Part shown: piece by piece, positions 6,222 through 50,318 of the stretch
Layout of the letters: every line of letters begins with the position of its first letter
Position numbering within the stretch: position 1 is the first letter of the stretch
NCBI GenBank assembly: GCA_010645155.1
Contig: CM021314.1
Location: forward strand, 5,400,240-5,464,239
DNA length: 64,000 nucleotides
Source of the DNA: Tigriopus japonicus
Lineage: Eukaryota > Arthropoda > Copepoda > Harpacticoida > Harpacticidae
Reading direction: 5' to 3'
Notes under the pieces: generated by a model
Seen by the model: only the letters and a program-made list of their open reading frames with translations
Databases searched by the model: none
What the model was told of the DNA's origin: nothing
Translations under genes and position numbers: made by a program

Positions 6222-6341
6222 ATGCTCGGCGGTGCCACCACAATGGGTCTGCCCAATGGCAAGCAGTTCCATCGTACCACGTCACCTTTAGATTTGGAAA
6301 CCTGGCGGGACACGTTTCTCAACGCCAATTCCGCTAAAACT
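6222..6341 (+). CDS. FoxP-A exon 1 (start codon)
   Basis: Forty codons starting [14 protein letters not shown] and ending NANSAKT, followed by the donor ACT|GTAAGTG in phase 0. The ATG sits in CACCACCATGC, a reasonable start context, with no other ATG in frame close upstream. No homology recognised. It is assigned to FoxP-A because its phase fits exon 2. Confidence 0.65.
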
Positions 6342-15300: not shown

Positions 15301-18300
15301 GAGCGAGCGCTTTGAAGCTAAACAAAATCGTTCATGATGATTCGATTTGCATGTTAAAATGAGTTTGCTTTTGCAAGAATCCACGGGAATCATCGGCATC
15401 GGGAGATCTTGTATATTTTGGCATTACCGACACTAGATTGCATTGCCTCTGGAAAGGCACTGTCTAGGCTCGGGTTTTTTCTTCCTTCCATTTCTATAAA
15501 TGGGATATAGAAGGGATTGGTTAGACTTAAATTTTACGAACATTGGATGCTAAAACTCGGAACTACTTACATAACTACGGACTGCCTTATTTGTGAGAAC
15601 GAAAAGGTGATGATAGAAAAAGAATAAAAATGCCATTCTTATGGAGATTTCGCAAGTTTTGGCCACTGTCTTGCCAAGCAAGCCCAACACCTCATGGTTT
15701 CTCGGAAATTTCGCCTATTCTCCAATACCTTCTTTAACTAAAAGATGATTAGTTTCAGTTTGGGCGAATTTTTAGGTTCATTTTATAAGTCTGTTGCCCT
15801 ACCACTACAACTGCTCGTCAAAAATGATAATAAATGAAAATTAAGATTGTTCGCATTATAATACAATTCAGTGCAAACATGACCGCCCTCCATCCCTCAT
15901 TAAGAGGTTTGTTGCAAAGTTTTATTGAGTACACAAAAATAAGCAAATTACAGACTGGATTGGCATCAATCTTCTGGGTTTTCTGCTCACTCGCCACAAA
16001 CGCACCAGAAAACAAGAACGAGAAAAGAAAGAACGAAAGATGAGTCTGAATTTGATGCAATAGCTCTCTTGCCTCTTCAAGAGTTTTTGAACCCTCCACA
16101 AGAGCGAGCTCGTGAATCGTCTGCAAATTACATTTCTTGATTTCATGGCATAAACAGCCAATTTCTGCTTGAGCATAGAATCATAAGCCCATTGTACTAC
16201 ATGGAACCAAAGGCACAGAAGGAGAACGAAAGGGTGAAAAGAGCTATATTTACCGCTCTTCTCGAGACAAGACTTGAGAATTTGGCTCTTTAAATGCCAA
16301 GAGTTGCAGAAATGCAAATAGCTCGAGGGATGGATGGAAGAAAGAAAGAAGACGGAATGAGGGAGATATCAAAAAGGGATAGAGGGATCGCTCACGCGGA
16401 AGCTAAGGCAGAAATAACAATCGTCGACAATCTGAGTGAGCACTGAGCAATCTCCGGATATCCAGTATACACGTATGACTCTTCTCGTTTAGCAGCACAT
16501 GGCCGAAGCTGGGCGAAAACAGCTGGAACAATTGATGCATCAACTACAGGAACAACTTCAGATCAATCTCTTGCAACAGACCCACATGATGCAAACCACG
16601 GTGGATAAGGGTGGGAAACCGTCGGCCAACGCCTTACAGCAACTCCAAATGCAGCAACAACAACTCATTTCCCAACTTCAAATCGTTCAACAACGCATGC
16701 TCATGGTAAGATCGTTATCGGTTTGTTACCATTTTTCCAAGAGGGTGCTAACTGAATGTTCCATTTGTCCCAGATGCCCAGTTTTCAACATCAGAAGCAC
16801 AAAGACGCGGATTACGGAGATCGTGCTTGGTTGAAGGAGAATGGGTGCTCAATTAGACAGTCTTTTGGAGGCTCACACGCTTCCAATCAAGACAGTCCTA
16901 GTCCCAAGTTGTCATCGTCGAATAAGCCGGTTCAAGGTAAACAATCCAAGTTGTCCACCCCGTTCCATCTTCATCAACGAGCGATAATTTATGTAGGGGC
17001 TAAACCGGAAAAGGAAAACACCCCCCTAACTCCACCTCCATTGACTCCGAGGCGTGGTCTGGATGCCAATCTGGACAAGCACCCCTTGTACAGTCATGGC
17101 GTTTGCAAATGGACAGGTTGTGAGACCCATTGTGACGACGTGACGGCCTTTCTCAAACACATTGGCTCAGAACATGTCCTGGATGACAAGAGCACGGCCC
17201 AAGCTCGTGTTCAAATGCAAATCGTATCTCAATTGGAACTCCAGCTGCAGAAGGAACGTGAGCGATTACAAGCCATGATGGCTCATCTCCATTTGACGAA
17301 GGAGGCCGATTTGAAAAGTGGGAAATCGCTCAATGAGGAGGTCCGCAGCACATCCAAAAGTGGCGATCCCATGCGATCCAATAGCCCCATTCAAGGCAAC
17401 GATAGGCAAAAGGTAGCTAGAGGGCTAATCAGTGAGGAATGCAATGATTGGGGTACTTGAAAGATTCATTTTTTTTATTTCTTGGGAACACAGAGTGCCT
17501 CGCCACCCAAGCTTCCGAAACCTCCCTGCCCTTCAATGGGATTAGGTGCTTACGGTTTTCCCTCGCCCATGACGAGTTTGGCCAATAATCACATGGGCAT
17601 TCACCCCACTCCACTATCAGCTTTGACCGCGGCAGCCCGCAATCCCACCATGCCCGGACTTCAGCCCCCAATGTCTACCATGGGTGGACCCATAAGACGG
17701 CGATTGTCCGACAAAATCCATCTTCCTGTTCCAAATGGTGAGTGTTTATGACTTTAATCCCCTTGAGACTTTCTCCTCCTTCCTTTGACCCTTACTTACC
17801 CTCCGTGCTCCCCTTTTGCTTCCTTTAACTTGGACCATTTCAAATTCAATATCCCCTCGATTGAACATTGAATCTTGGATATTGAGAGCACCCGTCGACT
17901 TTTCAAAGGGGGCCATAAAACAAATGGACTCCAATTTCAAGAGTGAAAAGACCATTCTCTTCTGGCCCTGCAGTTCATTTACACCTTATTCATTTCCAGG
18001 ACTGCCCTACATGCTAGATCGAACAGGATTGGACATTGCCCAAGGTAAAAACTAAAGCGGTTCAATGCCACCTTAGATATTGTCGATAAAACTAGCGGGG
18101 AACTCGTTATTTACTTTCCAGAAATCTATCGCAATCGCGAATTCTATCGTACTCAAGATGTCAGACCCCCCTTTACATATGCCTCCCTCATCCGACAAGT
18201 GAGTACTGGTCCAGACTTCAATGAAGGGGTGGTTTTCCTGGTAATAATAACCCCGTACTGGAAATTGACTTTTGCTCTCCCTTTTGTCCCTTTAGGCGGT

Positions 18301-21300
18301 CATTGAGTCGCCCGATCGCCAATTAACTCTTCACGAAATTTACAATTGGTTCACCAACACTTTTGCATACTTCAGACGGAACGCAGCAAGCTGGAAGGTA
18401 CTTTGTTTTTTTCATTCAAAAAATCCATCTCCCTCTTAACTTTAATCTGCAAGTAGTTCTTAAGCTCGTTCCTTACTATTTACATCGAACGAACGAGGGC
18501 AGCATTGTTGCCAGAGGAAAATTCGAATAGCTATGATTTCTCAGAAGAATGCTCAAAAAAGGCACATACTTGAACTCGCCTGTTTCGGGGTGCACTCAAT
18601 GCACACATACAAAATTCTAGATCTCTTTTTTTACCATTGGACTTTGGCTTGGTGCAATGCAAGTCCTCAGATCATGCAAGATGGCAAACTACGTTCCTAC
18701 CGTCGTGGTAGTACCGAATCATGGACGGAAGATAGGCATCTACTATTTCTGGTATAGCTCCATACTCTATATTCGAAACCAACGACCGACCGACTGACTA
18801 AAGGATGATGGTTACTTGATGGGATGGTTGGATGGCTATTCATCTAATCTGGGTGCGTGATGCATCGAGGTATGCAAAAGTGGTTTTTTTCTTTCTTTTC
18901 TTCCTCCTCTGCTTAAACTTCAACTTCAACTCGTACCCCGTTTAAGTACATTTTTGCCTATTGTTCACGCCCAAGTCAATGAGTCTATTTTTTGCCCTCC
19001 CCTGCATATTTCAGGCAATCACTGTGTCTCCAACTAAGCAGCTCACTTTGAGTGAAATCTACAATTGGTTTCAATCCACTTTTGCACACTTCCGATCTAA
19101 CGCCTCAACGTGGAAGGTAACGGTACTACAGGGTGCGTCACATAAATCTGAAGGTCCTGACAATTAGGCTTGGATGTTGTTACCGTACTTAATACCTCTT
19201 CTAAGTTGTAGAAGTCGCAATCGAAAGTCGTTATCGACCACGAAAAGTCGATAATGCAGCTTAGAACCCTAACAATCGCAACTCCCAGGCTTAATTGCTC
19301 AAAAATGAAGATAAAAGAGAGCTGGTTTGAAATGTCCGCAAACATGGTATTGAACTCTTATGGTCTTGATATTTAAGTGCCGCATCCTGTAGGATGAAAA
19401 ATCATAAATAGTGTCCGTGCATGATTCGCCATCAACGAATCAGCATTTGTGTTAGGAAATAGCTCTGGGGATACCATAACATGTTCTATCCGACCCTGAT
19501 CTCAAACTTCCCTCTCAAAGCCTGTCTCTTCATCATCATTGGGATCAAATTGATCCCATATCCGGACTAGGCCAAGCTATTTACACTGAGCGCGTGGCAC
19601 TTTTCTCCGTCATTCCTTCCTTTTTCTCCCCTCTTTCCTTCCTTGCTCTTCCTGGTTCCTTCCCTCTGATGGTGGGCGAAAATGTTCCACAAATACTTAC
19701 TAAGGGTCTTCTTCCTTCTTATTGGTCGTCATCGTCTTGGTCTATTTAATCATATGAGTAAGCTACTACCTACATGCCTGTCCGCCAACTTTGCTTGAGG
19801 CACAATTAGTGTAGTTGCTCGATGTTGATGTTCATGTTTGTCCACGAGGTTCGTCAACCGTTCGGACTGACGAGGAGGTTTCACTATTTTTGGGCAACTG
19901 CCTCTTACCCTCTCGTTCGTTCATTTTGGGAAAGACGCTTCATCGATTTTTGAGCGCTTTTCTGAGGATCAACGGGATTCTGCCATCAGGTATGATCTAC
20001 CATTAAACAACCAGAACTTCAGAACCATGCTTCATGTGACAGTCCTTGACAATTTTTGATGCGGTATCCTATATGGAGCGAATGCCTGTTGCGAGACCAA
20101 GCCTGGCTTGATGTTGATGTTGAACTCCATATCAGTGAGACAAACTGGGAGTGCTGCTCGCATATCTTATGTACACGTATACGATTTTTACCATCCGTTC
20201 CCACGGGGCGGATGATTAGTCGGATTAGCATCCGAGATGTGCTCTCATAACTCGATCCTAGAAAACTTAAGGCCGTAGTGCTTGTCGCCTCCCGACTAAA
20301 CTTTACTTGGTTGATTTCATTTAGTTTTTTTTCATAATACTAGAACTATGTCTCGCGAGAACAAGCGATCCGATTTTTGTGCCGTCCGCTCTCCAATGTG
20401 TGCCTGTTGCTTATATTTCATGTAGAATGCGGTCCGTCACAATCTCTCTCTTCACAAATGTTTCATGCGAGTGGAAAATGTGAAGGGTGCAGTGTGGACA
20501 GTTGACGAAGTGGAATACCACCGGAGGCGGCCTCAAAGAGGTGCGGCCGCAGCCTCCAATCATGGGTAAGCCTTGCTTTGGGATGAGGCCGTGAGGTCAC
20601 TTGCGAACACTCATTCTGCGTTTGTGGTGTTTGGTTTGGACTTTAGAACACTAATAAGACCCTTGGTAATCTCTTTATCTCTTTGTCTTTTTCAAACCCA
20701 CTCATCTTGTACATACCTGAAACGAAGCTATGAAAGCTAAACTCTGTGAATGGAATTCTTTCCATATTCTTCTTTCTCTGTCTCACTCTCTTTGATCCAC
20801 AGGTTTCTTCTACACTTCCTATCACTTATTCCCATTTCAGGGTCTTTCCTAACATCCAACTTAGCACTTAAGGTTCCAACTTCAGGGGTTATTATGCCCA
20901 TGTGTCTATCTAGGAACGGGAATTTTCAATACTAACACCAGAGACAAGATCCATTTCAAGGTCATCGTGAAATTGGTCTTGTCCAATCATCACATTTAAC
21001 TCTAGCTAGCCTTCATGAACTCACTCCCGTATTGGCGAGTCTCCTCTTTGAATGCTTCTATCAATTTCTGAATTCATAATATTCCACACTTTCCGTACAT
21101 ACTACTCAATCCCTTTCTCACTCCCCGTTTTCCATGTGAATATTTCATTTAGGACCATATCCATGGGTAACCACTTGCCCGCCGATCGTACCATTGCTAA
21201 CCAGTTGATTTTCTTCTTCTTTCCCTCTCTCTCTCACTCACTCACTCACTCAATCAATCACTACTTCCACACTCACATGTTTCCCTTCAACCACTGACCA

Positions 21301-23310
21301 CCTTGATTGCTGCCTTCACGCAACCTCTCGACCCCCTTGCAATATGTGTACAGAATGCCATTCGAACGAATCTTTCGCTGCACAAGTGCTTCGTGAGATA
21401 TGAGGATGACTTTGGATCCTTTTGGATGGTGGATGATGCCGAGTTTATGAAGAGGCGACACCTCTCTCGGGGCCGCCCACGCAAGTACGAACCCGGTCCG
21501 ACGCCCCCGCCCAACTCCGCCTCCTCAGCAGCGGCCTCACCTGCCTCCAGCACTCCAATCCCCAAGGAGGGTGGTCTCAATACAAATACCACCTCTGAGG
21601 CTGGATCAGGGGGACAGGGAGGCCCGTCCTCAGCGGGAGGAGGTGGCGACCGGGCGGCTGGTGGGCGTTTTGGCCTTAGTAATGGCCCGCCTTCACAGTA
21701 AGGATGTACTAGATCGATGATCAGTGTGCTTTTAGATGAGCCACTAGCTTGCTATAGCGAGAGAGGCTTGAGATGTTGATTGTTGAACTTTTTTAAGGAG
21801 ATGTTTTTGATGATGAAAAAGAAACTCCTTTGTCCACAGAATAAAGAGTCAATCTAACGTCCGTCCACTGTAAATACTGAAAAACTTTCTTAGAAGCATG
21901 GATAGGAAAAATACATTTAGAATAGCAGTATTTCTTTTCATCCTTCCTATTTCTGCCTGTTTTACTATTTCATTTTTATTTGTACAAATCATTTTTGTGA
22001 TCTTGTCAATTGGTAGGTATTTTGTGTGGAGGCTATTTTGAAACCCAATCGATGTGTCGCTCGCTACTTTGCTTGCTTCTTGCATGCACGCTTGGGGTAA
22101 TGGACATTGATGCGGTTTTATGAGCCTCCAAATAGGATTAGGCTAATTTAGAAAATTGACCACAAGATCTAAATTTGAAATAATCTGACCACTTCAACGC
22201 TATTTTGAGGGGAGAGGGGGGGGTCAAACATACGCATTGAAGAGGCAGAGAGTGCTTTCTTTATTTTCTCCCCCATTTTCTTGAACAGCACAAGTGGCAA
22301 ACACAACAATTGCGGCTAAGGCTAATATTTTGGCTGAAAACAATTCCCCTCCGAAGGGAATCAACCACGAGTGGTTGGCGGCTAACACTTCATTCACGCA
22401 CCCCTTTCGGAAGCACCATTACACACTTGACTTGTTGATGTTACAACCATCAGCAAAAAATACTCACCAATCCAATCACGATGGCGTCCCCTCTCCTCTT
22501 TCGCAATGGGAAAAAGGAATATTCATTATGAATTTTTGTCTTTGTCATTCCTCATTAATTTTTTCTTCAGTTCCCCCTTCTGCCTCTGACTGGATCCAAT
22601 TTAAATTTTCCCCTTTTCTCTCTTCCTCACATTCGTATCCATGCAGAACGAAGAGCCCGGCACCTTTTCTTCCCAATCCTCATCTGTACAATGAGGCTCT
22701 GAATGCCAGTCTACAGACGGCCCTTGGATTTGGGCCTGGCGATGGGCCTGGCGCGGCCAATCTCTCATTCCTGAACCAGACTATGGCCTCAGCTCTACAC
22801 CAACAACGGGAACGCGAGGAGAAATCCCAATCGCATCTAAACAATAATAATAACAATAACCATGCTCTCAACGAAAGGTAAGCCTTACTCAACAAACTTG
22901 CGCTCGTTAGTTGTTAGATAAATGGTGCTTTATGTTGATTCCCTTGATGTAGGAACATGAATTTGGATTATGCCAAACACCTTCGCAACACCACCAACTT
23001 CCTGAACTCTTTGAGCGAGCGTCGATTGGACCGCGACTCGCCAGATTGTCGGAGTGTGACCGACCACGACGAAGTTATCAAGCCTGATATCGGCAAAACC
23101 ATGAACGGGGGGAACCCTGAAGACGAGGATATTGCTGAACACGATCAGAGCTCACCAGGGATGCGAAACAGCGATGACCCCATGGATTCTTCCATGAGTA
23201 CGGACTACAACGGAAACAGCGGCAATATCAAGATGGAAATGTCCAGTGGAGACAAGGTTCATCAGCAGCAAATGGACAAAGACATCAAACGGGAGAAATT
23301 TGAAAACTGA
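6222..23310 (+). CDS. FoxP-A: forkhead box P transcription factor, full-length, with alternative forkhead exons
   Basis: A sequence-specific nuclear transcription factor of the FoxP family. CDS: 6222-6341, 7373-7528, 14540-14821, 16493 or 16496-16705, 16774-17412, 17494-17737, 18000-18044, 18122-18198, then 18296-18397 or 19015-19116, then either 20426-20565 + 22647-22877 + 22953-23310 (867 aa) or 21354-21701 (740 aa). All joins keep phase. Domains in the long form: Q-rich region about residues 150-256; C2H2 finger about 359-390 ([20 protein letters not shown]); leucine zipper about 400-430 ([17 protein letters not shown]); IRRRLSDK linker; forkhead about 579-665 ([26 protein letters not shown]). 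The finger, zipper and forkhead closely match vertebrate FOXP1/2/4. The C-terminus holds SUMO-like IKME and IKRE motifs. The start is the first good ATG of the exon; upstream non-coding exons are possible. It lies convergent to FoxP-B. Family identity is certain; the N-terminal exons are less so. Confidence 0.93.
7373..7528 (+). CDS. FoxP-A exon 2
   Basis: Acceptor TGTTCTCAG|GATGAC and donor GATCAG|GTGAGTC, phase 0 at both ends. Encodes 52 residues rich in S, T, P and D ([12 protein letters not shown] to GGPDDQ), a typical disordered N-terminal segment. Confidence 0.75.
7529..14539 (+). other. FoxP-A intron 2 (7.0 kb)
   Basis: Non-coding as far as I can see. Holds a CCAA run at about 8263-8292, a G-run at 8588-8596, CT repeats at about 11811-11832 and assorted ORFs under 150 codons without domains. 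Its size suggests room for intronic enhancers or further alternative first exons, but none could be identified. Confidence 0.5.
14540..14821 (+). CDS. FoxP-A exon 3, start of Q-rich region
   Basis: Acceptor TTTTTGCAG|GGAAAA and donor CATCAG|GTAAGAT, phase 0. Encodes 94 residues: a basic start ([13 protein letters not shown]), a proline stretch, then glutamine-rich sequence with [12 protein letters not shown] and [14 protein letters not shown], as expected for the FoxP N-terminal glutamine-rich region. Confidence 0.88.
16493..16705 (+). CDS. FoxP-A exon 4, Q-rich coiled-coil region
   Basis: About 70 residues containing [19 protein letters not shown] and [20 protein letters not shown], comparable with the glutamine-rich segment ahead of the FoxP zinc finger. 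The acceptor is a tandem TTTAGCAG|CAC, so the exon can start at 16493 or 16496, adding or omitting one Gln. Donor ATG|GTAAGA. Confidence 0.88.
16774..17412 (+). CDS. FoxP-A exon 5: C2H2 zinc finger and leucine zipper
   Basis: Acceptor TTGTCCCAG|ATGCCC, donor CAAAAG|GTAGCT. Contains the FoxP zinc finger (VCKWTGCE then FLKHIGSEH, two Cys and two His in the expected places) directly followed by the [14 protein letters not shown] link and the leucine zipper used for dimerisation. A 60-nt GT-AG segment inside it (16937-16996) may be a micro-intron; it is a multiple of three and open, so either form keeps frame. Confidence 0.95.
17494..17737 (+). CDS. FoxP-A exon 6, linker to forkhead
   Basis: Acceptor GAACACAG|AGTGCC after an 81-nt intron; donor CCAAATG|GTGAGTG, leaving phase 1. 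Encodes a proline-rich linker ending in [11 protein letters not shown], which matches the conserved (V)GPIRRRYSDK segment just N-terminal to the forkhead in vertebrate FOXP proteins. Confidence 0.93.
18000..18044 (+). CDS. FoxP-A exon 7, 45-nt linker exon
   Basis: Small exon between CATTTCCAG and GTAAAAAC, phase 1 at both ends, encoding [14 protein letters not shown]. The DIAQ ending corresponds to the conserved ADIAQN just before the forkhead. At 45 nt it can be skipped without changing frame. Confidence 0.88.
18122..18198 (+). CDS. FoxP-A exon 8, forkhead N-terminal segment
   Basis: Encodes [12 protein letters not shown] then [14 protein letters not shown], the start of the forkhead domain and helix 1. 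Acceptor CTTTCCAG, donor CAA|GTGAGT, ending in phase 0. Confidence 0.96.
18296..18397 (+). CDS. FoxP-A exon 9a, forkhead helix 2 and hinge (canonical version)
   Basis: Exactly 34 codons, phase 0 both ends: [19 protein letters not shown] then [15 protein letters not shown]. This is the canonical FoxP helix 1-2 and hinge segment. It includes the alanine equivalent to human FOXP2 A539, which permits domain swapping. A second copy of the same length and phase lies 617 nt downstream. Confidence 0.96.
19015..19116 (+). CDS. FoxP-A exon 9b, duplicated alternative of exon 9a
   Basis: Acceptor TATTTCAG|GCA and donor TGGAAG|GTAACG; 34 codons in phase 0, the same as exon 9a. Encodes [19 protein letters not shown] then [15 protein letters not shown]. 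It keeps every structural landmark of helix 2 but changes the hinge (YFRRNAAS to HFRSNAST). Intact splice sites and reading frame argue for a functional, mutually exclusive exon rather than a relic; inclusion of both exons would also stay in frame. Confidence 0.9.
19129..19389. mobile_element. Short mariner/Tc1-like MITE in the intron after exon 9b
   Basis: Imperfect terminal inverted repeats: CAGGGTGCGTCACATAAAT at the left end and ATTTAAGTGCCGCATCCTG at the right, differing at about three positions, with a TA on each side (19127-19128 and 19390-19391) as expected for a TA target duplication. The 261-bp interior has no transposase. It begins 12 bp after the last base of exon 9b, so its insertion redefined the downstream part of this splice-donor region. 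Confidence 0.65.
19390..20425 (+). other. FoxP-A intron between exons 9b and 10a
   Basis: No coding exon or repeat recognised. The 60-70 codon ORFs here have no domain. Any sequences that enforce the choice between the duplicated exons would be expected in this intron and in 18398-19014, but I cannot point to a specific one. Confidence 0.45.
20426..20565 (+). CDS. FoxP-A exon 10a, forkhead recognition helix and wing (canonical version)
   Basis: Acceptor CATGTAG|AATGCG, donor CATGG|GTAAGC, ending in phase 2. Encodes [13 protein letters not shown], then [18 protein letters not shown] and HRRRPQRG, very close to vertebrate FOXP2, including the DNA-contacting Asn, Arg and His (N550, R553 and H554 in human FOXP2). 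It splices in phase to 22647, giving the long isoform. Confidence 0.96.
21354..21701 (+). CDS. FoxP-A exon 10b, alternative terminal forkhead exon
   Basis: Acceptor TGTGTACAG|AATGCC, phase 0; 115 codons then TAA. Encodes [13 protein letters not shown], then [18 protein letters not shown] and [15 protein letters not shown], the arthropod-type alternative end of the FoxP forkhead. The human H554 position is Thr here, and RGRPRKY resembles an AT-hook core. The tail is Pro/Ser/Gly-rich. An AATAAA at 21840-21845 could end this isoform. Confidence 0.94.
21840..21845 (+). terminator. Candidate poly(A) signal for the exon 10b isoform
   Basis: A perfect AATAAA 139 nt after the exon 10b stop codon, well before the next coding exon at 22647, consistent with exon 10b being a terminal exon. 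Confidence 0.55.
22647..22877 (+). CDS. FoxP-A exon 11, C-terminal region of long isoform
   Basis: Acceptor CATGCAG|AACGAA, donor AACGAAAG|GTAAGC, phase 2 at both ends. Encodes [17 protein letters not shown], matching the conserved GAALNASLQAALAE segment after the forkhead in vertebrate FOXP2, then a charged stretch and a run of seven Asn (22841-22861). Confidence 0.92.
22953..23310 (+). CDS. FoxP-A exon 12, C-terminus and stop
   Basis: Acceptor TTGATGTAG|GAACATG; ends with TGA at 23308-23310. Acidic, low-complexity tail with EDEDIAEHD and two SUMO-consensus-like sites (IKME, IKRE), as in the acidic FOXP C-terminus. Confidence 0.92.
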
Positions 23311-24653: not shown

Positions 24654-25011
24654 TCATGGCTGGCCCTCTTCCATGACCGGGGACATTGGGCGGTTCTTAG
24701 AGAGATCTTCTGGGGTAGGTTCTCGGTCCTCTCCTCGTGGGCTTTCTGGTGGGGTGAAACTGTTGCTTCTCGAAGCCGTAGCCGCTTGACCGTCGTCCAT
24801 ACCATTCTCAATGCTTTCGGAATTCTCGTGGCTGAACTCTTCTTTTATGACCAGAAAATCGCTAGGATCGGATGGTCGGGGACTGGTGTTCGACTCTGAG
24901 AACCTCATCGAAGGGTGAGGACCGTGAGCGTGTCGAGCTTGCTCTAAAGCGTACATGTCATGAGATGAGGACGAAGGAGGGGACAGAGGCATGGGTGACC
25001 GCGATTGGGAC
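24654..25011 (-). CDS. FoxP-B last exon, C-terminus with CtBP-type motif
   Basis: Acceptor AATTTCAG|G; ends EEGQP then TGA at 24654-24656. Ser/Pro-rich, with the SUMO-like IKEE (in FLVIKEEF) and PEDLS at 24699-24713. PxDLS motifs recruit the CtBP corepressor in many transcription factors, and FOXP1/2 are known CtBP partners, so a repressor role is plausible. Confidence 0.88.
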
Positions 25012-28000
25012 CTGAAATTTGCAATAAAAAGGCTGTTTGAAGGAGCTTTTCCAAGCAGTGGTGATTCCAGAAACACCCACCTGTTGTTGTGATTTAGGTT
25101 ATGCACGAAATCTTCTACTCTCCTGGGAGATCTTGAGTGTAGGTGCTGTCCCATTGAATGGTGACCACGTGGAGAAGGCGATCGGGCAACCTCGAGACTA
25201 CTATTTATAGAGATACCCAGACCGTGAAGATAAGCTGCTTGTTGCTCGGCCAAAGTCAGACCTCCGAGGGGATAGTGATGGGACATGTCGGTCCCGTTGA
25301 AATGCATAGACGGACTAGAATTGAAGGGCGGACTCCGCGAAGCTGACGACGAGGATCTAAAATGAATTCAAGTTTGATATGAATGTCATATTGAATACAT
25401 TATGCTAAGCACAAGGTAAGAAATGGGATTGTGCCTCGCCTCTCCCCTTCCCCGGATTTTTTTATCTATGTTGCTTTGTTTCATAGCAATGACACACACA
25501 AAAGGGATGGTTCTCAAGGTTGTATTCAGAATGCATAAGTAGAGTCAAGGATCATTGGGTTTCATGAAAACTTACCCCACACTCGAGCCCGAGCCACCGT
25601 TGGCTCCTCTCTGGGGTCTTCGGCGATGGTATTCCAATTCATCAACGGTCCATACGGCTCCTTTCACATTCTCGACTCGCATGAAGCATTTGTGAAGCGA
25701 GAGATTGTGACGTACCGCGTTCTATTCAGAAGAAAAGTGAAGAGAAAAGGGCGCTTTAGAAATGGGAGCACGACACACACACGGATCTTTAATACGTAAC
25801 CCTGCATGTTGAGCTTCAGTATTACTCCTGATCAAACGAGACACGAGCTAACAATCCCTAATCATATCAATTCATTGAGATGGTAGATACCCATACCGAT
25901 ATCTGCCTAATCTCTGGATGGTGGGAAATGATATGAAGCTTACCTTCCATGTGGCAGCATTCCTTCGGAAATAAGCGAACGTATTCTGGAACCACGTGTA
26001 AATTTCGTTGAGGGTCAATTGTCTGTCCGGGGATTCAATGATACCCTAATCGAAATAAGAAGGAACTTGCAAAATTTCATTCATTTTCAAGCCATTACGT
26101 GGCAATACCTGTCTTATTAGCGCTGCGTAAGTAAAAGGAGGTCGCACATCATTGGTGCGATAGAATTCCCGATTTCGAGAGATTTCGTTTTCAATGTCCA
26201 GATTGCTTCCGGATCCGGATCTACCGTCCTGATTTCTCGGTCCTCGGGAACAGTACTCTTCCAAATGGTTTTGATGATAGGGCGAGTGTGTGATCTGGAG
26301 TTTGGGCAGAGCTTTCTCCATTTTGAGCTCTCCAGACCGGTGAGGCATGGTCAGACCATTCGAATTCAAACCCAAAAGGGGCCCTCGTCCCATGGGACCA
26401 GCATTCCCACCCAACCCTTGAAAGGGTAAGGCCAAGCTCTGAAGGGCGGATAAGCCATTGAATGACGTGTCCATTTGTCGATTGTCCTCGCCACCAATTA
26501 GTGGCTCGTGATGAGGTTTCAAGACGGGCTTCCGATCTTCGTCTTGTTCTCGGAAGTGTTTTCCGTTCTTTGTAGGGTGAAGATGCGTCATCATGGCGTT
26601 AAGCCGATCCTTTTCCTTCTTCAACTGAATTTCGAGCTGTGACACGATCTGGACCTGAACCCTTGTCTGGGCCGTCGATCTATCACTCAAGACATGATCC
26701 TTATCGATGTGCATCCTAAAAAAGACAAACGTACGTATGCTGGTATTGTTTTCTATGTCTTGAAGTTTCAAATTGAGTCAAGGTACTTACTTGAATTCTT
26801 TGAAGGACGGAAAAGGTGTTTCACAACCTGTCCAACGACATATCCCGTGACTATAAAGCGGGTGAGAACCCTGAGGTTCTCTTTTGATTTGATCACCAGT
26901 GAATACTTTGCCTTGGAACAAACCAGACGAGCCGTTTCTTTCCACGCCCTACAAGAATAATAACATTATTTAAAAAAAAACGAGTGTGAGGTACACGGAA
27001 TTTGGAAAAAAGCGTAATTTTTTTAAAGTAATGTCTGTGAGCCCCCAAGACCTTTGTGAACACGTACCATTGATTTGCCCCCATGAAGCTGTGTCATGAG
27101 ATCCTGTTGTTGCACTTGGAGATTCCTTAGTGATCCAGGGAGCTTCTCAGAGTTGGTCCCATTTATAAGATGTGCCTGTTGAAACAAGTTCATCTGGAGA
27201 AGATGTTCTAACTGCTTTCGCGTCTGATCCGCCGAAGTTTTGCTCTGAAACGTAATACCAACATTTTAACAACAGTTCTGGATTAGCACTGTTGTTGGAT
27301 CCAAGAAACGCTAAATCCGGCTCAGAGAACTTTCTTTATCCTATCCTGATTCTGGCTATGCCGATTTGTCCAAGATTAATTATTTTGTATCATTAGCTAA
27401 CCATATTGTTCGCCCATTGTTCTCAGTGGTCCAAACCTAGCCTCGTGAGCCTTCCACGTGTGGAAGTGGTGAATAGAAATGTTTCATTGGTTGTGTTGAA
27501 ATGAAAATGAAACAAACAAGGGGTAGTGTCAATAAACACCGATAAATTCTAAGGTTGTTTGTCGTTGTAAAGGACACAATGTGCCTTGTCCTTTTTTACT
27601 GTGCTTTGGCTGTCTTTGCGGCAATAATGACACCTTTATTGTTTCCTATGTTTGTTTTTATCAATCTATTGAACCGGATGACAAGAAACCGGGAAAACCT
27701 ATGGGGATCCCGGATGGAGGGACAATAAACATTATGAACTTTGACGGATTTCAACCGAATACCCCAAACATTACGGAACATCGGAATAATGTCAAAACGG
27801 ATCGGATTGTGTATGATTGAGCTTTAATATTGATGACCAATATCATGACGACAAGCGTCTATTATTTGCTTTGTTTTCTTCTCATTATTGTGCTCTTGCG
27901 CGTGTTGGTAGAAAATGGGACACTTGAATCGAGCTTAAGTGCATTTAAAGGGTTTCTCATTCTTTTAAACGATCCAATAACCTGAAGAGCGAGGTACCGT

Positions 28001-31000
28001 AGCACTCATCATAGAGATAAATATCAGTTAGTGTATATGTTCTTTTGTTTCTCTATGAACAATGATATGGTTCAACGGCAATTTGTTGTTTTCTTACCTC
28101 AAAATGCCGAACAAGATCATCGCCTTAGTCATTCATTTCCCAACCAGCCTCAGTCTTCACCAACATATTTTGTCATAGAAAAGCTTTTTGAATATGGAAT
28201 GTTCTTACTTAGAGCACATTTGGCTAAGCCGAAGAGGGGTAATGTTTTGGGTCATTTTGGGCTTAAATTGCGTCAAGAAAGGGGTTACTTCCGAACAGGC
28301 CCTGAAGTTTGTTACTATCGCACAACAATGTCGATCAACACCTTTTGAAACATATTTTTCTGCAATCTCCGTCAGCCCAAACTCACCTGAAAATTTTGGT
28401 TCTGAACCAAGTGTTGCAATTGTTGTGTGGACAGCCCTAATTGGGATTGTAGCAGGTTAAAATGTTCCATGGTTTCGTTCAACGATGAGGTTTGAGCTAA
28501 AAGGCTTGCGTCGCTCTTGACTTGGATCATCTGCTGAAGACACAATTTGGAAACAATGTTATTGGATTTGGAACAGTAGCACGACTAATAGCTTTCGAAT
28601 TGAAAGTCCTGGAACCTCCAATGATTGCCTCGCTAGTAGTGGGAACAATCAAGATCAACTTTCTGATCAGTTGTATGGATGCCTATCAATAATGGAGATG
28701 TCACAAACTTCAGGACACAAAAATATAATCGGTTCCCATGAAACCGTTTTCTAGAACGGAAAGGTCATTTGTACTACCCTCTTGTTTGAGTGGAGAGGCT
28801 AATTGAAATCGACTCTTCAAAAGAGAGCGACACAACAAATGTCAAATCTCTTTGTGTCTAATGGCTTTTTTATTTATTTGTCAACTGTGGCCTTGAGCGG
28901 AAACCTAGCTTAGGCAAATCTATAAATAATGGAACTTCGACAACGCGTCTCTCTTTCTTTTTCCTCTACCTTGTACTGTACTGTAGAGCCGTTCTCGAAC
29001 AAAGACAGCAGTTCCTCAAGGGGGGTCAAAGTGCTTCAGAGGGAACCGGGGAAAGTCGAGCTATTGATGACATGATGGAAGAAGAAGAAGAAGCCAGCTT
29101 TGATCCATCACTCTCACGGTTCATATTTGAGGACTTGACAAGCCGCGATCAATTGAATATTTCATGATTTATCCCGACATTGATTGAATCGTAACTGTCA
29201 TTCCCTCAACAACGCCAGACCGTCAGATCAAACTTTAAACCAAGTTCGTTTGGCTTTTTGCCTTTCGGCATCCTCGAAATCATCATCAACCATTCCAAAT
29301 GTCGAAAGCAAGCCGGAATAATAGTTTGGTGGGGCATAAAAAGAGAAGTGTTTCGGGATTACTTTGGAAGTTCTCCTCGCTTAAGTGGATGGATGCCAGA
29401 GTAGACACAATTTTGTCCTTTTTTACGAAGAAATAATTCCTTCCCTCCCCCCTATCAAAACTCCTCTTCCATCTTCCTCCGTCAATTCTGAGTGGAACAT
29501 CAACATTGCCAAGAAGTCGACCTAATTTCAGGGTCCCTATGGCTGATTCCGGTCCTTAAGATCCGCTTTTCGTTGCCCTGAATCGACACTGAATGTGGTC
29601 ACCCTGAATATAAAATTTGGCCGTTCCCAAAAACAGATACTGTTTTCCTTGGCGCTAATCTAAACAATGCAGGCCTCATATCTAAACAAAACGCATTCGT
29701 CAAGGGTTATATTTGGGCAAAGCCAACGTTGATGATGTGGACCGGGGAATTCAAAATTATGTCTGCACATTTGTTTACACGAAACCTTCGGTGCTTGAAA
29801 AGTGTTTACCGAATGCCGTTCACGCACAAACTGTGACTTGTAGGAAACACACTAAGCTTGAGAGTTTAAAAACGAAGCCTCCATGCCGTTTATTCTGTAT
29901 TTCAATGTTTGTCCCTCTTCTTTCTTTCTCCCTCCAAGCCACTATGAATATCCGGAATGAAAACCAAATAGAAATTGTTGACTTGTCAAATACAACTCAA
30001 CTTATCGGCGCCCACATGCTACTTCTGGGAAGGCAGCAGTAACAACAACAACAACAATAACAACCAACACCACCGAGAAATCGACAAGAACAATAGGTCT
30101 CTTGAAAAACACACATCCAAACGCTAAACTAGAATAGTTAAACTTCAGTTAATAGTTAAACTTCAAGAGGCCTTTTGGATTAATCTCCAAAATTGGTGTG
30201 GGAGCATTGGTTTGGTGTTGACAAGTAAGCTCTAAATGACCCCAATTGAACTTCCGACCATGTTCATCATCAACCGAATTCCAAATTAGACCTTGTCAAC
30301 CAATGTCAATCTCGTTCCTAATACAAGAACTGATTTGATGGCTTTTTCATGTTTAGTATTTCCCTGGACACTTTCCCCACTTCCGTTCACTTGATCAACA
30401 ACACTATCTACCCCGTCTACCTTCAATGTTAGTTAGCGAAGAGCCCAGGAACAATGAATGCCAAGTGGTGTTTGCAATCTTGTTTATCATCTTGGCCCTA
30501 AAACTTGGTGGCTTATGCAATGAACCGAAGACCAGCTTCAACGCAAGAAGAATCATGCCTCCTGGTTAGTTGCTCAGGTATGAAAATAACAAAATTCTCC
30601 TCTTACTTGTTGTTTATCTCTGTTTTGTATTGACAGAGCGGACCTTTGGCCGATTTCCTCGGAATCCATGGTTGGTGTGGGTGCCATTGGAGTTGCTGCT
30701 GCTGATACGGATGCTGCCGCACCTCCGATCAATCTAGGAGTTACTCCCGCTCCTCCTCCTGAATTTGTTGTTGTTGTTTTTTCATCTGATGAACTTATTA
30801 TTGAAGAGGACGAGGACGACGAGCTGGAGGATGTTGTTGTTGTTGTTGTCGTTGGGTTTGCTTCTGCGTTGTTGACTTGCATAGTATCCTCAATTAGGAC
30901 TTGTTTGTTGTTGAACTTGTTATTGTTATTGTTGTTGTGGTGATGGTGGTGGGGGCGATGGTGGTTGTGATTATTGTTATTGTGCCGTTTAGCCTTGATG

Positions 31001-34000
31001 TTCTCAGGCTCTTCAGGGATGCCATTGGACATGATGACTCCTTCGTCCTGAAATCGTAAGAGAGACCACAATGTGAAGTAATTCAATTATACAATCCCAA
31101 TGCTTCTGCGATCAGCCTGCTCCTTAAAAAACGTGGGTGTGTGCGGTTCCATTTCTAGTTTAAATTACGACCAATCATATCTGATATCAAATCGATAAGA
31201 CCGACTTAGGCTCGGTCGGAAAATCTGGAGAATTAACTGATTGCCGTTTTGTTTCTCGCGCTATCCACCAAATTTGAAGCATGATCAATGAATTAGGAGC
31301 ATAAGTGCTTCTTGTTAGAGCGTTTAAGTTCCCCAATTCCCAAATTTTGTGCCTGACAAATGAAAAGCTCAATTGTTTTTTTTTGCAATGTATCCTGCTC
31401 ACCTGTCCGTTCGAATCTTGCAGAGTCCTCGTCATTGTCACAATTTCTTTCTAGCACCCGATTCGAACCTCAAACATTAGATTAGCACATGGCACTCCTT
31501 CTCAAACTAACCCGACTAATCCCACTGAACTCGGAAACTAAACTGAGTCCGTCTTCAATAAGCCCACTTTGTTATTGTGGTGAACACGATCGTTGCCGTT
31601 GCTGCTATTATTATTGTTATTGTTGTTTTGTTATTTTCGAGCGAGACCAGAGCACCACAGCGAACCACAATCTTAGGCACAACAAGGAACGAACGACTTC
31701 CACTACTATATTCTGTCGATGTTGACTAGCTGTGGGTCTCGTCGCTCTTTGCTCAAGCAATCGCACAACAACAAGAATATTATACGACTGAAGCAAGCCG
31801 AGCAATTCGTCGCTAATACGAGAGACACTCAGAGGTTGACGTGTTTTGGCAGGCAGCCGGCACTTTGTTTACTTCATTCCCGGACGAAGCCAGCAAGAGT
31901 AAACAACATTGGTGCCACTGGGGGAAAAACCGACGCAGGCTTTGCAAACAACCGAGGTACTAATACTAAGGGGTATGAAGGTAGGGATGACAGTCGAGAT
32001 ATTTGTTATAAGACTTGGCAAGAGAAAGAAAGGGTTAGCTAGTCCGTGGGCTTGTCGAGAATTTTTGCCAGTGGTCTTTGTGTGTCCCTGTCAGATTGTG
32101 TTGTAGAAATAAACGCTTATCCACATGCATGATTGTCGAGTAGTGAACGACCGAGCTCTCGATTTGTTCGTTGATTGCTGACAGGAATGAGTACGGTGTT
32201 TCCCACGGAAGAAGGGGTCGATCGTTCACTACACGAAGCAATTCCCTTTGAGGCGACTGTTTATTCTGTTTATTCTACCGTTTTCAACTCTTCGGCTTTT
32301 TTTGCCCTCACGCTCTCTCTCTCTCTTTCGACCCAAGTTTATTTCAATATTGCAAGCTTTTTGCTAGTTACAAACGGTCCAACCTGAACACATTTGGTTA
32401 CGAAGGGAAGGGGTAAATTTATCCCATGAAGAATAATAGTGTCATGTCATCAAACCAATGCCACAATAATAGACCAGGTTACGATATTTTTCGGCGATAT
32501 CTGTGTTTGTTGGGAACATCCTGTTCGAGACGTAATTTTGCAAGTCATTCACGTAGTGCTCGAACTCGTTCGATTAATATGTTATGTGCCAGAACACTCC
32601 ACTGACATCTTGTGGGTTAAATGCAGGAAGTGTAAACTGAGAGAAAGTGCACCTTTTTATGACGTCACTTCAGACGATTGGGTTCTCATTATCGATGAAT
32701 AATGTTTTATTGTAGTATGAAATGTAGTTGAAGGAGTGTCAAATTTTGAACAAGAGGAGAAACAATTTACCATCTATTTCAAATGGTTCACCACCCAGAG
32801 AACCAACAAAATTACCAATTGGGGACTTCTATGCGAACCATAATGTTGAAAGATTTCGCTTCCACAAGTGGGTGCCGAAAATGGTCGTTATTGACTTTTC
32901 AAGCGAGTGTATGTATGTGAGAGAGAGAGGTTGTGAAATCCATATTTGTTTCATTCAATTTATTTTACTTGGTGTGTTTGAAGTGCTGAGCAAATAGTGC
33001 AACACAGTCGTTAACTTTTGCAATTTCCTCGGTCCGCCCTCAGTTCTGTGTGCTCATGCAGTGGTCGTGTTTATTCAATCAAACTCCATAGGGTTTACCA
33101 ATACCGTAAAGTGTTCGCCATTTCTAAACAGTTTGTGAAAGAATCAAATTTCGTTTTTTTGCTTTTATAAGAACAACAATAGAATGATTGCTAAAAATAA
33201 TCTTTTGGAGAGGGAGCAAGTACAACTCCTTGCAATACACCCAACGGCGCGAAAATATTTAGCAAAACTTGGCTCGCAAAATGTTTATGGTATTCCTGGA
33301 TTTGTTTTTTTTTGCAATGATCTCGAATGGTTGGCAACAACTTTTTTCTCAGTGATGCCAATCTGATGAAATCATGAATCATATGGTCGTTGTAAAAACA
33401 TTGCATGGAGGCCTTATCATGTGTTTGTATGGCATTTGTTTCGTTCGTTACTCCCCAAGGTATAACAAAGTTCCTATGTACTTTAATATTTAAAAGTAAC
33501 GACAGGAACTTTATTCTTGGCATCCCTGTCGACACCAACAAACAGGTTATTGCTCCATGACCAAGACAACAATGATCATTATTTATTTTTCTGTAAATGC
33601 AATGTCTGCAGACGGTGCTCGCCATGCCCTTTTTGATATCGTTCATTTCATTCAGGTATGCTCTTGCTCCAAATCACAAGGAATAGAAGAAAATGACCAT
33701 TTCAGAAAATATAACACAACAACAAGCCAACTGACGCTTCACATATCTATTAAACCATATTCATCAAGTACTACTTATTCGAGATTAATGGTTGGGTTAA
33801 GATACATTTTAAAGCATTTCCAACTGATTGTCACCGATCTATTCGTAATGGGTGGTTAGTGGCTTGACATCATCAATTGGCTTTTGAAAGAAGGGTTCAA
33901 ACATATCACAGGAGGAGGCAGAGGATAGAAAAGTGTTTGTTGCGAGATGTCGTTGCGATTTTGACGGGGTGCAAATGATTAGCAGGTTTCCTGAAATATC

Positions 34001-37000
34001 ATCGATGCGATCGGTCGATGCAACCAGTCAGATCATTAATTTAAGGTAGGGCTAAAGGATGCATAGGTGCTCAAACCGAAAGCGGTTCCATATTTTGCAC
34101 GTCTCAAACAAAGCGTCCAAATAGATGGATGATTTTCTTTTATTGGTTGATGGTGTAGCTTTGGAATTCATGGCTCGTAAAATTCGCCCATTAAAATGTT
34201 ACAAAACACTCATATGGGATTCATATTTGATTGAATGTTGTTGAAAAGGTTTAAATCCGTTAAGACAAAAATAAAATTGTTTTTGTTGAAACCAAGTTTT
34301 TTTTGCTTCAGCTAAATTGCCGATAAAAACATGAGACGGCTTTAAATAACAAAAATACTATTCAAGGGGAATCTTAAGTCTTACATTTATAGCGCAGGTT
34401 TCCCGCCGTAAAATCTTCAAACTCAATTGGCACAGCCCAAATTACTAGAAGACCATTAAAAATGAAACCACCCAGAACTTAAAGTTGCCGCATGACAACC
34501 TCAAAGAATGCTTCCACATTTCAAGAATGCCATTTGCAACAACAGATCATTTCAGCTTTTATTGCTTTTTTTTAACAATGAGTGCGGGCAAAATGTATTT
34601 TGAAGTGAGTTTCTTTGTTTCAAATGAATTATTCTTTCTATTTAACGAAGGACCAAAATGTTTCAATGTTGACGACGTCAGAAGATTCTTCATGCAAGCT
34701 TATCTTCGAAAAATAACAAATTTATCATTTCCGATTTTGACATCTCTTTAAAATCGGCCCTTTCAAAGTCTAGAAGGGATCACAAATTGACAAATTGAAT
34801 CATAATCTTTTTTCGTTTGAATTTTACGACTTGTTATCACACTGAATTTATGTCATGGCCATTGTTGAGCGAACAAGATTGCTGATAAAGCTGTATATTT
34901 AGCATGCACCCTGCTTATTTATTTACTCAATTTTAATAAATTCATTCAAATCCGTATGATTGTCCAAGTCAATCGTGGACATTGACTTTAGTGAATTTAC
35001 GTTTTTAATGAATCCTAATCTTTAAGATTATGTCGAGTCCAAGTGTCTGAGATACATTTCTCGATCTACGATAGAAGGTGAGCTTATGTGTGCATCAGGT
35101 AATATGGCGGGAGTATAGTAAAACGAAGTACAAATAACCATGCTCATGGCCACATACGTTGTACTTTTTTACCGCAGAGAGGGCATCTTATGTAGTGAGG
35201 CTATACTTAAGGATGGTTATTTCTACTTTGTTTTTCTATGCTCCCATCACAGTGCATGATGATGCACACAACAACTCAACTTCATGCGAAGAAAAAATGT
35301 TCGTCCAAAGTCTGGCCAACTCTTTTTTCACATCAAATGCGAGGCAAGCAATTAATGTAAACAAATTCAGAGGTATCTTTAGTTGGTGCAATTTGAATAA
35401 TGAGTGAAACATCTGCACTACTCAAGACGGTCAAAACATAATACAGGGTGTCCAATAAGTTGTTGTTAGATATCAATTCGAGTTATGTTTTTTTGTAAAG
35501 GAATATCCAAAAATTAAGAGAAGTAGAGAAGCTTGAGGGACAGTTATTCCTTAGCGTTGATTTTTTTTATGGTTTGAAACTAGTTTTGAATAAAACTAGT
35601 CGCCGTTCAACTCGGAAACAAAGCAATCTTATTTTTTAAAAATATATTTTGAAAACATTCGCCAATACATTTGGGCTTATTCGCCCTTTCATAAAAAAAC
35701 AAAAACTTAAAAAAGATCATTTCTTTAAGTCATATGATGCCTTGCAAAGAAACTTGTCATATTTTAAATAATCTTCGAAGACATTTTGTTGGGACGAGGT
35801 TTGCCAAGAATAAACTTGAACGGAAGTTGTGCAAACGTAAATCAAATAAATTATGTGCTACTAGCTTTGGGATGCGCTTTGCTTCATCAATCCAAAACAT
35901 AGCTGGGAAAGGTTGACAGACGGTGGTCTAATAAGAACTTCAAAACTTCATTTCCAAACTTCTCATTTCCATACAAGTTTTAAGGATACTTGTTCTTTAC
36001 GTCACATCAAGATACAACCTACGTTTGGTTGATGCCACATAAAATGTAATCCTTTTAAGAATTTTTGAAAATCCATTTGCTAGGGATTTATAACGCATTA
36101 TACCAAACTAACTGACAAGGGAGGAGACGTGGCGTCGTGGTTAGCGCAGTTTCCTATAGTGAAAGAGGTCCCAGGTTCGATTCTCCTCCCCGACCTTTCT
36201 CGAGGAAACTTTTAGACGCTAATTCACACCCACAGACGGAGAACCATTCTGATACCGGACATGAGATTGCCTATCGGAACTACTTTAGACGATGTGATGG
36301 CTGGCTTCGCTGGCCGGGCGAGGCTCAACCCTCCGACCCTAGCACCAATACCCCCCCCCCAAAAAAAAAAAAAAATCAAGAATACTAAGAGATAGTTAGG
36401 CTTTCCTCTTGATCCTCGTTGGCAAGATAAGTAAGAGAGCAAAGACTAAAGTACAAACTCAGTATCGCAACTAAACCTTCAAAAAAGTATCAACTCTAAT
36501 CATCGAAATGGCCCGTGGCACAATCAAATCGCTCATAAGTCAAGAGTTGTTCCCATTTTCTCGTTGGGAACTTCGTAAAACGATGACTTGGATCACTTAC
36601 TGAAGTGTTGCTTCCCATGGAATGGAGGTCATGAGTTTCGAAGGTTCTGAACAATGGTTTATGATTGTTTTGTTGTGGTAGAACTGGATGATCTAGGTGA
36701 CGATTGTGATGGTGGTGGTTCAAGGGATTAGATCGATCTGGTCCGTAGGGTGGTTGGGGCATGGAGCCTAGATAATCGGCATTCCCATTGGTCATTTCTC
36801 GGTGCCGTTCCAACATGGATCGAAGTTCACCAAAAGCACTCTTGGTTAGTAAAGTTCCGATCATGACCGGGATCAATGTTGATGACTGCTTAGACAAGCT
36901 CTTCACGACTTTCTAAACCTCAAAATATGGTTGTGACGGATTTATTTAGTCTGACCGTGTGTGCGCTAGTATTTCATGAGGTGGACAAGTTTAAAGCGCG

Positions 37001-42259: not shown

Positions 42260-42379
42260 CTGATACGGAAACATTGGCCTTGGGTATTGCCGTTCCAAAT
42301 ACTGATCTTCAACGCCTGGAAGCAGTTCCATGTAGTATCTCACATTGGACATGAATCCCTTCTGTATGTCCTCGTCCAT
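42260..42379 (-). CDS. Candidate far-distal first coding exon, probably of FoxP-B
   Basis: Forty codons from an ATG in a good context (CAAAATGGA): MDEDIQKGFMSNVRYY, then a PGVEDQYLERQYPRP segment and FPYQ, followed by CAG|GTACGTGG in phase 0. An in-frame stop lies a little upstream. Composition is protein-like and the phase fits 36912 or 31047, so I infer a third FoxP-B start. It could belong to an unrecognised gene; a second in-frame ATG at 42388 would add three residues. Confidence 0.5.
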
Positions 42380-42388
42380 TTTGCACAT

Positions 42389-50159: not shown

Positions 50160-50318
50160 TTAATGCCCTTTTACTAAAGGATTGTATTTCCTCGGTCTCC
50201 CCCGAGAAAAATGTCGCCTCTTTATGAATTCGTCATCATCCACCGTCCAAAACGAGCCAAAGTCATCTTCAAACCTTAGAAAGCATTTATGGAGGGACAA
50301 ATTGATGCGAATTGCATT
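50160..50318 (-). CDS. FoxP-C terminal forkhead exon (alternative type)
   Basis: Acceptor GGTTTCAG|AATGCA, phase 0, 52 codons then TAA. Orthologous in type to FoxP-A exon 10b: [45 protein letters not shown]. Confidence 0.95.

What the first reader, a model, noticed from the sequence alone, without database searches (positions are those of the whole stretch)
18296..50318. Alternative forkhead versions of FoxP-A are split between FoxP-B and FoxP-C
FoxP-A can encode either the canonical third segment (NAVRHN...VENVKGAVW) or the arthropod alternative (NAIRTN...EDDFGSFW...RGRPRKY). FoxP-B has only the first, FoxP-C only the second. This is what subfunctionalisation by loss of alternative exons after duplication would produce, with splice isoforms turned into separate genes.
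Basis: partly seen in the sequence, partly recalled or inferred. Interest (0 to 1): 0.9.

Follow-up and report, generated by a model that had tools for sequence, protein, structure and literature searches.

The report
Copepod FoxP genes split splice forms
In a small marine crustacean, a developmental control gene (FoxP) exists as four neighbouring copies; one copy can still make both of two ancient alternative versions of its DNA-binding part, two copies carry only the standard version and one carries only the alternative version, so a splicing choice has in part been turned into separate genes.

Summary
FoxP-A carries both third forkhead exons, 3a (20426-20565) and 3b (21354-21697); FoxP-B has only 3a, FoxP-C only 3b. 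Genome-wide searches find three 3a and two 3b exons, and no relic of a missing exon was found. The species is a Tigriopus copepod; T. californicus has orthologues of all four genes, C included (163/183 residues, forkhead 89/92). The a/b exon pair occurs in single insect, shrimp and vertebrate genes, so it predates the duplications and the absences are losses. Gene order D(+) A(+) B(-) C(-) and the tree (A+D 89/93; B+C not rejected) suggest two sister pairs, not proven. Splice forms turned into paralogues are a known kind; a FoxP gene with only the alternative exon appears to be a new variant. No expression or DNA-binding data were available.

The parts
6222..23310 (+). FoxP-A, the two-form gene. 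N-terminal exons (from about 6222) located by match to database protein P0245; their borders were not checked
16774..17412 (+). FoxP-A exon(s) with zinc finger and leucine zipper; P0245 implies a short intron inside this stretch that my model read through
18122..18198 (+). FoxP-A forkhead exon 1
   Evidence: AG/GT borders
18296..18397 (+). FoxP-A forkhead exon 2a, 102 bp, phase 0 at both ends
19015..19116 (+). FoxP-A forkhead exon 2b, 102 bp, phase 0 at both ends; alternative to 2a; 34/34 residues identical in T. californicus P0006
20426..20565 (+). FoxP-A exon 3a, canonical (NAVRHN...ENVKGAVW)
21354..21697 (+). FoxP-A exon 3b, alternative (NAIRTN...EDDFGSFW...RGRPRKY); donor gtaagg at 21698, in-frame TAA at 21699-21701 if unspliced
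22647..23310 (+). FoxP-A shared C-terminal exons (22647-22877, 22953-23310)
24654..36864 (-). FoxP-B, canonical-only gene; first coding exon 36864-36601 located by match to P0240; not all exons between 36601 and 27244 were modelled
26109..26948 (-). FoxP-B zinc finger (26948-26791 and 26715-), leucine zipper and forkhead exon 1 (to 26109); intron splits the zinc finger
25944..26045 (-). FoxP-B forkhead exon 2
25576..25721 (-). FoxP-B exon 3a; no 3b found in the next intron (25575-25357) or elsewhere in the 154 kb scanned except in A and C
52928..53278 (-). FoxP-C leucine-zipper exon (53278-53114) and linker exon (53024-52928); zinc-finger half not recognisable; exons further 5' not found
51197..51375 (-). 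FoxP-C forkhead exons 1 and 2 fused; the intron kept in A, B and D is gone
50160..50318 (-). FoxP-C exon 3b, then stop; no 3a in the 878-bp intron before it

Best explanation
A single FoxP gene that could splice either of two third forkhead exons (3a canonical, 3b alternative) was multiplied locally in the copepod lineage into a cluster D(+) A(+) B(-) C(-). A kept both exons and has a second choice (2a/2b). B and D each lost 3b and make only canonical forkheads. C lost 3a (also its zinc finger and one intron) and makes only the alternative forkhead. Shown: exon content, open frames, splice sites, protein-level conservation in T. californicus, and existence of both exons in single genes of outgroups. 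Inferred: that absence means loss; that the pairs are A/D and B/C. Inferred from FOXP1-ES: C binds a different DNA motif from B and D and, by its leucine zipper, may pair with its paralogues, so an alternative-form activity could be set by C's own promoter rather than by splicing alone.
For: Exon inventory in 154 kb and genome-wide: 3a in A, B, D; 3b in A, C. 27 of 27 modelled acceptors are AG and 24 of 24 donors GT, borders having been chosen with that in mind. T. californicus orthologues: A 633/659 (P0246), B 549/605, D 512/536, C 163/183; forkhead 92/92 in A, B and D, 89/92 in C. Between paralogues most codon changes are silent: A3a-B3a 19 silent and 1 replacement in 39 codons; A3b-C3b 20 and 8 in 46. 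Both exons in one protein in 17 of 357 retrieved. Tree: A+D 89/93, D 94/94, C with P0133 and P0177 95/93. FOXP1-ES prefers CGATACAA, FOXP1 GTAAACAA (passage of PMC11701043).
Against: The tree rests on 182 columns; B+C, A+C, A+B and C+D are all unrejected (AU p 0.454, 0.178, 0.235, 0.094). The B rows form one group in 0% and the A rows in 28% of 200 bootstrap trees, and Tigriopus B does not join the other B-like rows in the free tree. 11 of the 21 rows I treat as copepod are unnamed sequences. Intron losses conflict: A and C share an intron before exon 1 that B and D lack, while of the genes with a zinc finger only B has an intron inside it. C-type 3b has W-T where 130 of 142 retrieved 3b exons have W-M; the other W-T exons are 5 vertebrate and 5 unnamed ones, which could mean C is older than A's 3b. 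No RNA or binding data for C.
Confidence: 0.75

Rival explanations
1. FoxP-C is not a copepod duplicate but an older, free-standing FoxP lineage with only the alternative exon, kept in copepods and a few unidentified animals and lost elsewhere.
For: Unnamed sequences P0133, P0177 and P0218 have exon 2 followed directly by 3b and group with C (95/93 with P0133 and P0177; with P0218 added 89/78, one group in 99% of 200 bootstrap trees). P0133 also lacks the exon 1/2 intron. W-T instead of W-M is found in 12 of 142 retrieved 3b exons: 5 vertebrate, 2 entries of T. californicus C, and 5 unnamed with exon 2 next to 3b.
Against: C lies in the same cluster as A, B and D. Holding all 21 presumed copepod rows in one clade is not rejected (AU p 0.525; 0.161, which had one row wrong). 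The unnamed sequences may themselves be copepods, or may have a 3a downstream that I cannot see. T could be a reversal.
Confidence: 0.13
2. B, D and C were born as incomplete copies and never carried the missing exon.
For: No relic of any missing exon was found.
Against: 3a lies between exon 2 and 3b, so C needs an internal loss, and in A 3b lies between 3a and the C-terminal exons, a layout B shares without 3b. Third codon positions are far diverged, so old relics would have faded.
Confidence: 0.1
3. FoxP-C is a decaying fragment without function.
For: No zinc finger, FOXP-CC below cut-off (19.1 against 28.9 bits), very short C-terminus, recognition-helix Thr replaced by Ile in this species.
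Against: Open in two species, 163/183 residues conserved including the leucine-zipper exon, forkhead 89/92; AG/GT borders; annotated as a gene in T. californicus (P0121, P0122).
Confidence: 0.05
4. The copies are haplotypes or an assembly error.
For: None found.
Against: Third-position differences of 19 to 29 of 39 codons between 3a exons, opposite orientations, and T. californicus entries for all four that share a contig length of 15,806,032.
Confidence: 0.01

Closest known systems
Arthropod FoxP with two forkhead isoforms (Drosophila FoxP-I1/I2)
   Same: One gene, an alternative exon for the last forkhead segment giving a partly distinct forkhead domain (PMC6372147 passages)
   Different: There one gene does both; here four genes, three of them single-form, and in A both alternatives can join the same C-terminal exons (T. 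californicus models)
Vertebrate FOXP1 / FOXP1-ES (exon 18 / 18b)
   Same: Same a/b pair by sequence (vertebrate proteins P0050, P0124 and P0134 hold both exons; the sources do not name them FOXP1); the b form changes DNA preference (PMC11701043 passages)
   Different: I know of no vertebrate FOXP gene with only the b exon; that FOXP2-4 keep only the a exon is recalled from Santos et al. 2011, whose text was not held
Function-sharing after duplication: zebrafish duplicates, mitf in fish, SKI7/HBS1 in fungi
   Same: Paralogues each keep one product of an alternatively spliced ancestor (PMC5306129 passages, with mitf seen as a cited title; PMC3597508 abstract and outline)
   Different: There the alternatives are divided; here a third gene, A, still encodes both

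Membership tests
FoxP transcription factors (FoxP-A, B, D) | FOXP-CC zinc finger/coiled coil and forkhead above Pfam cut-offs | tested here: met
   FOXP-CC 110.7, 100.9 and 98.2 bits (cut-off 28.9); forkhead 85.4, 94.8 and 96.2 (cut-off 27)
FoxP transcription factors (FoxP-C) | FoxP-type forkhead | tested here: met
   forkhead 86.9 bits; A3b-C3b 38 of 46 residues identical
FoxP transcription factors (FoxP-C) | Complete FOXP-CC domain | tested here: not met
   19.1 bits, cut-off 28.9, only profile positions 39-66 of 69 (zipper half). C is a FoxP-derived gene, not a complete FoxP
Subfunctionalisation by loss of alternative exons | Ancestral gene had both exons | tested here: met
   both exons in one protein in 17 of 357 retrieved, from insects, shrimp, vertebrates and one unnamed source
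Subfunctionalisation by loss of alternative exons | Duplicates keep complementary exons | tested here: met
   B 3a only, C 3b only
Subfunctionalisation by loss of alternative exons | No remaining gene performs both | tested here: not met
   A encodes both; three exon combinations in database entries
Subfunctionalisation by loss of alternative exons | Partitioned expression or function | not testable with these tools
   no RNA-seq or assays available
Subfunctionalisation by loss of alternative exons | B and C are sister duplicates | tested here: inconclusive
   B+C AU p 0.454, not shown and not rejected

The most novel reading that the evidence does not exclude
FoxP-C belongs to an ancient stand-alone class of FoxP genes that encode only the alternative, FOXP1-ES-like forkhead; the class is wider than Tigriopus (P0133, P0177, P0218) and has been overlooked because one FoxP gene per invertebrate was expected. 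In copepods it sits beside canonical-only genes and one two-form gene, so the a/b decision is made both by promoter and by splicing.
Probability: 0.15. Interest if true: 0.7.

Novelty: new variant of a known kind. Interest (0 to 1): 0.55.

Why it matters
The a/b choice in FoxP switches DNA-binding preference in vertebrate stem cells (FOXP1-ES), and the fly isoforms have different effects when overexpressed, but in the systems I know the two forms share one gene, so their duties are hard to separate. A culturable copepod with one gene for the b form alone, two for the a form alone and one for both offers a natural dissection: each form could be removed without touching splicing. It is also a clear case of an alternative-splicing choice partly converted into gene copies by exon loss.

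Tried and rejected
Looked for degraded 3b in B and D and degraded 3a in C with tblastn at loose settings and with profile HMMs in six frames against one shuffled control: nothing. Considered that C's exon 2 descends from A's 2b: identity is lower (19/34) than to 2a (21/34) or to B's exon 2 (23/34); not supported, though the differences are small. Tried to place C precisely: trees. One search used a misplaced leucine-zipper block and still had it wrong for Lepeophtheirus; one search supersedes both. Other AU results, for the record: B+C 0.192, A+C 0.0709, all presumed copepods 0.161, all presumed copepods without P0133 and P0177 0.137. One search printed part of its table and then failed on a key error; one search failed on a grouping error and was rerun. 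Considered an AT hook in RGRPRKY: 12.3 bits, cut-off 17.4, inconclusive. Considered conserved synteny with Drosophila (alpha-Tub and hyd beside FoxP): a tubulin gene was found; hyd could not be searched.

Literature: (10 of 10 searches). Listings seen: 9 of 9, 15 of 40, 20 of 130, 15 of 185, 12 of 19, 5 of 5, 4 of 4. In those I saw no paper on copepod FoxP duplication or on a 3b-only FoxP gene; subscription papers are mostly not held. Of PMC8918179 (survey of 32 panarthropods, one copepod) I saw section 6 and passages; its per-species counts are in a figure I could not see, so FoxP duplicates in Eurytemora may already be counted there.

Full report
What is there. The window is C11:5400240-5464239 of a 194.85-Mb eukaryote assembly. 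FoxP-A's product matches T. californicus FoxP proteins at 96% (633/659, P0246) and an unnamed public protein (P0245, which reads across the spliced 2a-3a exons) at 659/662, so the organism is a Tigriopus copepod other than T. californicus, probably T. japonicus (the species guess is inference; 'Tj' in my scripts is a label). With flanking DNA fetched on both sides a fourth, FoxP-D, appears 45 kb upstream of the window start on the same strand as A. Order and strand: D(+), A(+), B(-), C(-), within about 100 kb. In the models, 27 of 27 acceptors are AG and 24 of 24 donors GT; the borders were picked with that in mind.

Exon content. Forkhead exons: A has 1, 2a, 2b, 3a, 3b; B has 1, 2, 3a; C has fused 1+2 and 3b; D has 1, 2, 3a. 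Profile scans of 154 kb in six frames find 3a at 98.1 (A), 97.5 (B) and 94.7 bits (D) and 3b at 120.3 (A) and 111.9 bits (C). The only further matches above 6 bits are 3a/3b cross-matches and overlapping sub-matches on D's 3a exon; after these the best are 3.6 and 5.8 bits, and one shuffled copy reaches 2.1 (profiles from 69 distinct 3a and 16 distinct 3b peptides). Genome-wide, a 3b query and a 3a query each find five places, the same five exons of this cluster: A and C as b-type, A, B and D as a-type. FOXP-CC is found in A, B and D only.

Second alternative pair. A has two versions of exon 2, both 102 bp and phase 0 at both ends, so 2a/2b and 3a/3b can combine in frame. T. californicus entries show 2a-3b (P0001, isoform X7), 2b-3b (P0006, isoform X2) and 2a-3a (P0246); 2b-3a was not seen. 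These are database gene models, not reads. Exon 2b is identical in 34 of 34 residues between the two species, so it is not a decaying copy. Of 357 retrieved proteins only P0006 carries a 2b-like sequence by pattern; Eurytemora P0138 has two exon-2-like stretches of another kind. Exon 3b of A is followed by a donor at 21698 and in T. californicus joins the same C-terminal exons as 3a, so here 3a and 3b look like mutually exclusive internal exons.

The alternative exon is old. By pattern 17 of 357 retrieved proteins hold both 3a and 3b: 12 arthropod ones from the first search (insects and the shrimp Halocaridina), P0050 from the same search, and P0124, P0134, P0229 and P0237 from the second; P0050, P0124, P0134 and P0237 are vertebrate by their source names, P0229 is unnamed. 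These are mostly gene models that run both exons together, but they show both exons in one gene. Of the retrieved exons, 142 of 142 3b have Thr (20 distinct peptides) and 214 of 214 3a have His (68 distinct peptides) at the same recognition-helix position. The equivalent His of FOXN1 contacts DNA bases (PMC7062188 passages; the equivalence is by the N-x-x-R-H pattern, my reading), and FOXP1-ES, the vertebrate b form, prefers CGATACAA over GTAAACAA (PMC11701043 passages). The C gene of the window has Ile there; T. californicus C still has Thr.

Are B, C and D real genes? T. californicus has orthologues: B 549/605 (P0240), D 512/536 (P0241, TCAL_01203), C 163/183 (P0121, TCAL_01207, partial) and 138/154 (P0122), A 633/659 (P0246, TCALIF_01205); the forkhead is 92/92 in A, B and D and 89/92 in C. 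Between paralogues silent changes dominate: A3a-B3a 19 silent and 1 replacement of 39 codons, A3b-C3b 20 and 8 of 46. The duplicates are old and conserved at the protein level. C is reduced: its FOXP-CC match covers only the zipper half, below cut-off, and it ends after [14 protein letters not shown].

Age and order. D-type proteins occur in Lepeophtheirus salmonis (P0242) and in unnamed sequences (P0243, P0244, P0247 and others), recognisable by RGNPNLDP before the forkhead. B-like single-form proteins occur in Eurytemora (P0138) and unnamed sequences. In the best tree (31 rows, 182 columns; 21 rows presumed copepod, 11 of them unnamed) D is 94/94, A+D 89/93, C with P0133 and P0177 95/93. The A rows are one group in 28% and the B rows in 0% of 200 bootstrap trees; Tigriopus B does not join the other B-like rows in the free tree, though holding the five together gives a higher likelihood (AU p 0.578). 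B+C is not rejected (p 0.454); nor are A+C (0.178), A+B (0.235) or C+D (0.094). All presumed copepod rows as one clade fit as well as the free tree (p 0.525). Orientation agrees with the pairs A/D and B/C, but introns give mixed signals. My reading: local duplications of a two-form gene early in copepods; 3b lost in D and B, 3a lost in C, A keeping both. If B and C are sisters, those two alone are a textbook complementary split; that step is not shown.

Why not simply subfunctionalisation. The duplication-degeneration-complementation idea asks that no copy do both jobs. A can. What is seen is a two-form gene plus single-form specialists. The general phenomenon is known: examples in fish (PMC5306129 passages) and SKI7/HBS1 in fungi (PMC3597508 abstract and outline). 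For FoxP itself, Santos et al. 2011 (text not held; title seen in reference lists; content recalled) described alternative forkhead exons dating to early Bilateria and vertebrate paralogues that kept one of them. New here, as far as my searches show, are a FoxP gene with only the b exon, the four-gene copepod cluster and the 2a/2b pair.

An open puzzle. Unnamed P0133, P0177, P0196, P0218 and P0219 also have exon 2 followed directly by 3b through a short read-through intron; whether they have a 3a further on is unknown. P0133 also lacks the exon 1/2 intron, like C. Of 142 retrieved 3b exons 130 have W-M and 12 W-T: 5 vertebrate, the two T. californicus C entries and these five. Either C-type genes are widespread in copepods, or a 3b-only class is older than copepods. 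P0196 falls next to a gastropod in one tree (84/82), so not all need be one clade. This could not be settled without named genomes.

Mechanism, marked. Shown: exon content, conservation, and absence of the zinc finger and of one intron in C. Inferred: the forkhead of C reads a b-type motif; its zipper ([29 protein letters not shown] in both species) lets it pair with A, B or D; and C thereby supplies b-type activity under its own promoter, perhaps as a competitor, since it lacks the zinc finger and the long C-terminus. Not tested: expression, binding, dimerisation.

Noticed in passing
C11:5353889-5355769, window coordinates -46350 to -44470 (L011): A fourth FoxP gene (FoxP-D, canonical-only) outside the window, with orthologues in T. 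californicus (P0241) and Lepeophtheirus salmonis (P0242). It extends beyond these modelled exons on both sides.
   Followed up: yes
19015-19116: Second alternative forkhead exon (2b) in FoxP-A, identical in 34 of 34 residues to T. californicus P0006, joined there to 3b.
   Followed up: yes
C11:5345434-5346081, about 8 kb upstream of the first modelled FoxP-D exon: A tubulin gene (alpha-tubulin by its start sequence, from recall) sits beside FoxP-D; Drosophila FoxP is flanked by alpha-Tub and hyd (passage of PMC6372147), so the linkage may be ancient. The hyd side could not be searched.
   Followed up: partly
50306-50304 (minus strand): The recognition helix of this species' FoxP-C reads NAIRIN: Ile where 142 of 142 retrieved 3b exons, including T. 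californicus FoxP-C, have Thr.
   Followed up: partly
P0138 (Eurytemora carolleeae): A B-like FoxP protein with two exon-2-like stretches in tandem, perhaps another alternative exon 2 or a mis-annotation.
   Followed up: no
P0121, P0122, P0133, P0177, P0196, P0218, P0219: Outside vertebrates, the 3b exons with W-T instead of W-M are these seven entries (two of one gene); in the six that show the junction as read-through, exon 2 is followed by 3b without 3a, and P0122 is a spliced FoxP-C model.
   Followed up: partly
16490-16498: Tandem acceptor (tagcag) before the glutamine-rich exon of FoxP-A; P0245 lacks and P0246 has the extra Gln.
   Followed up: no
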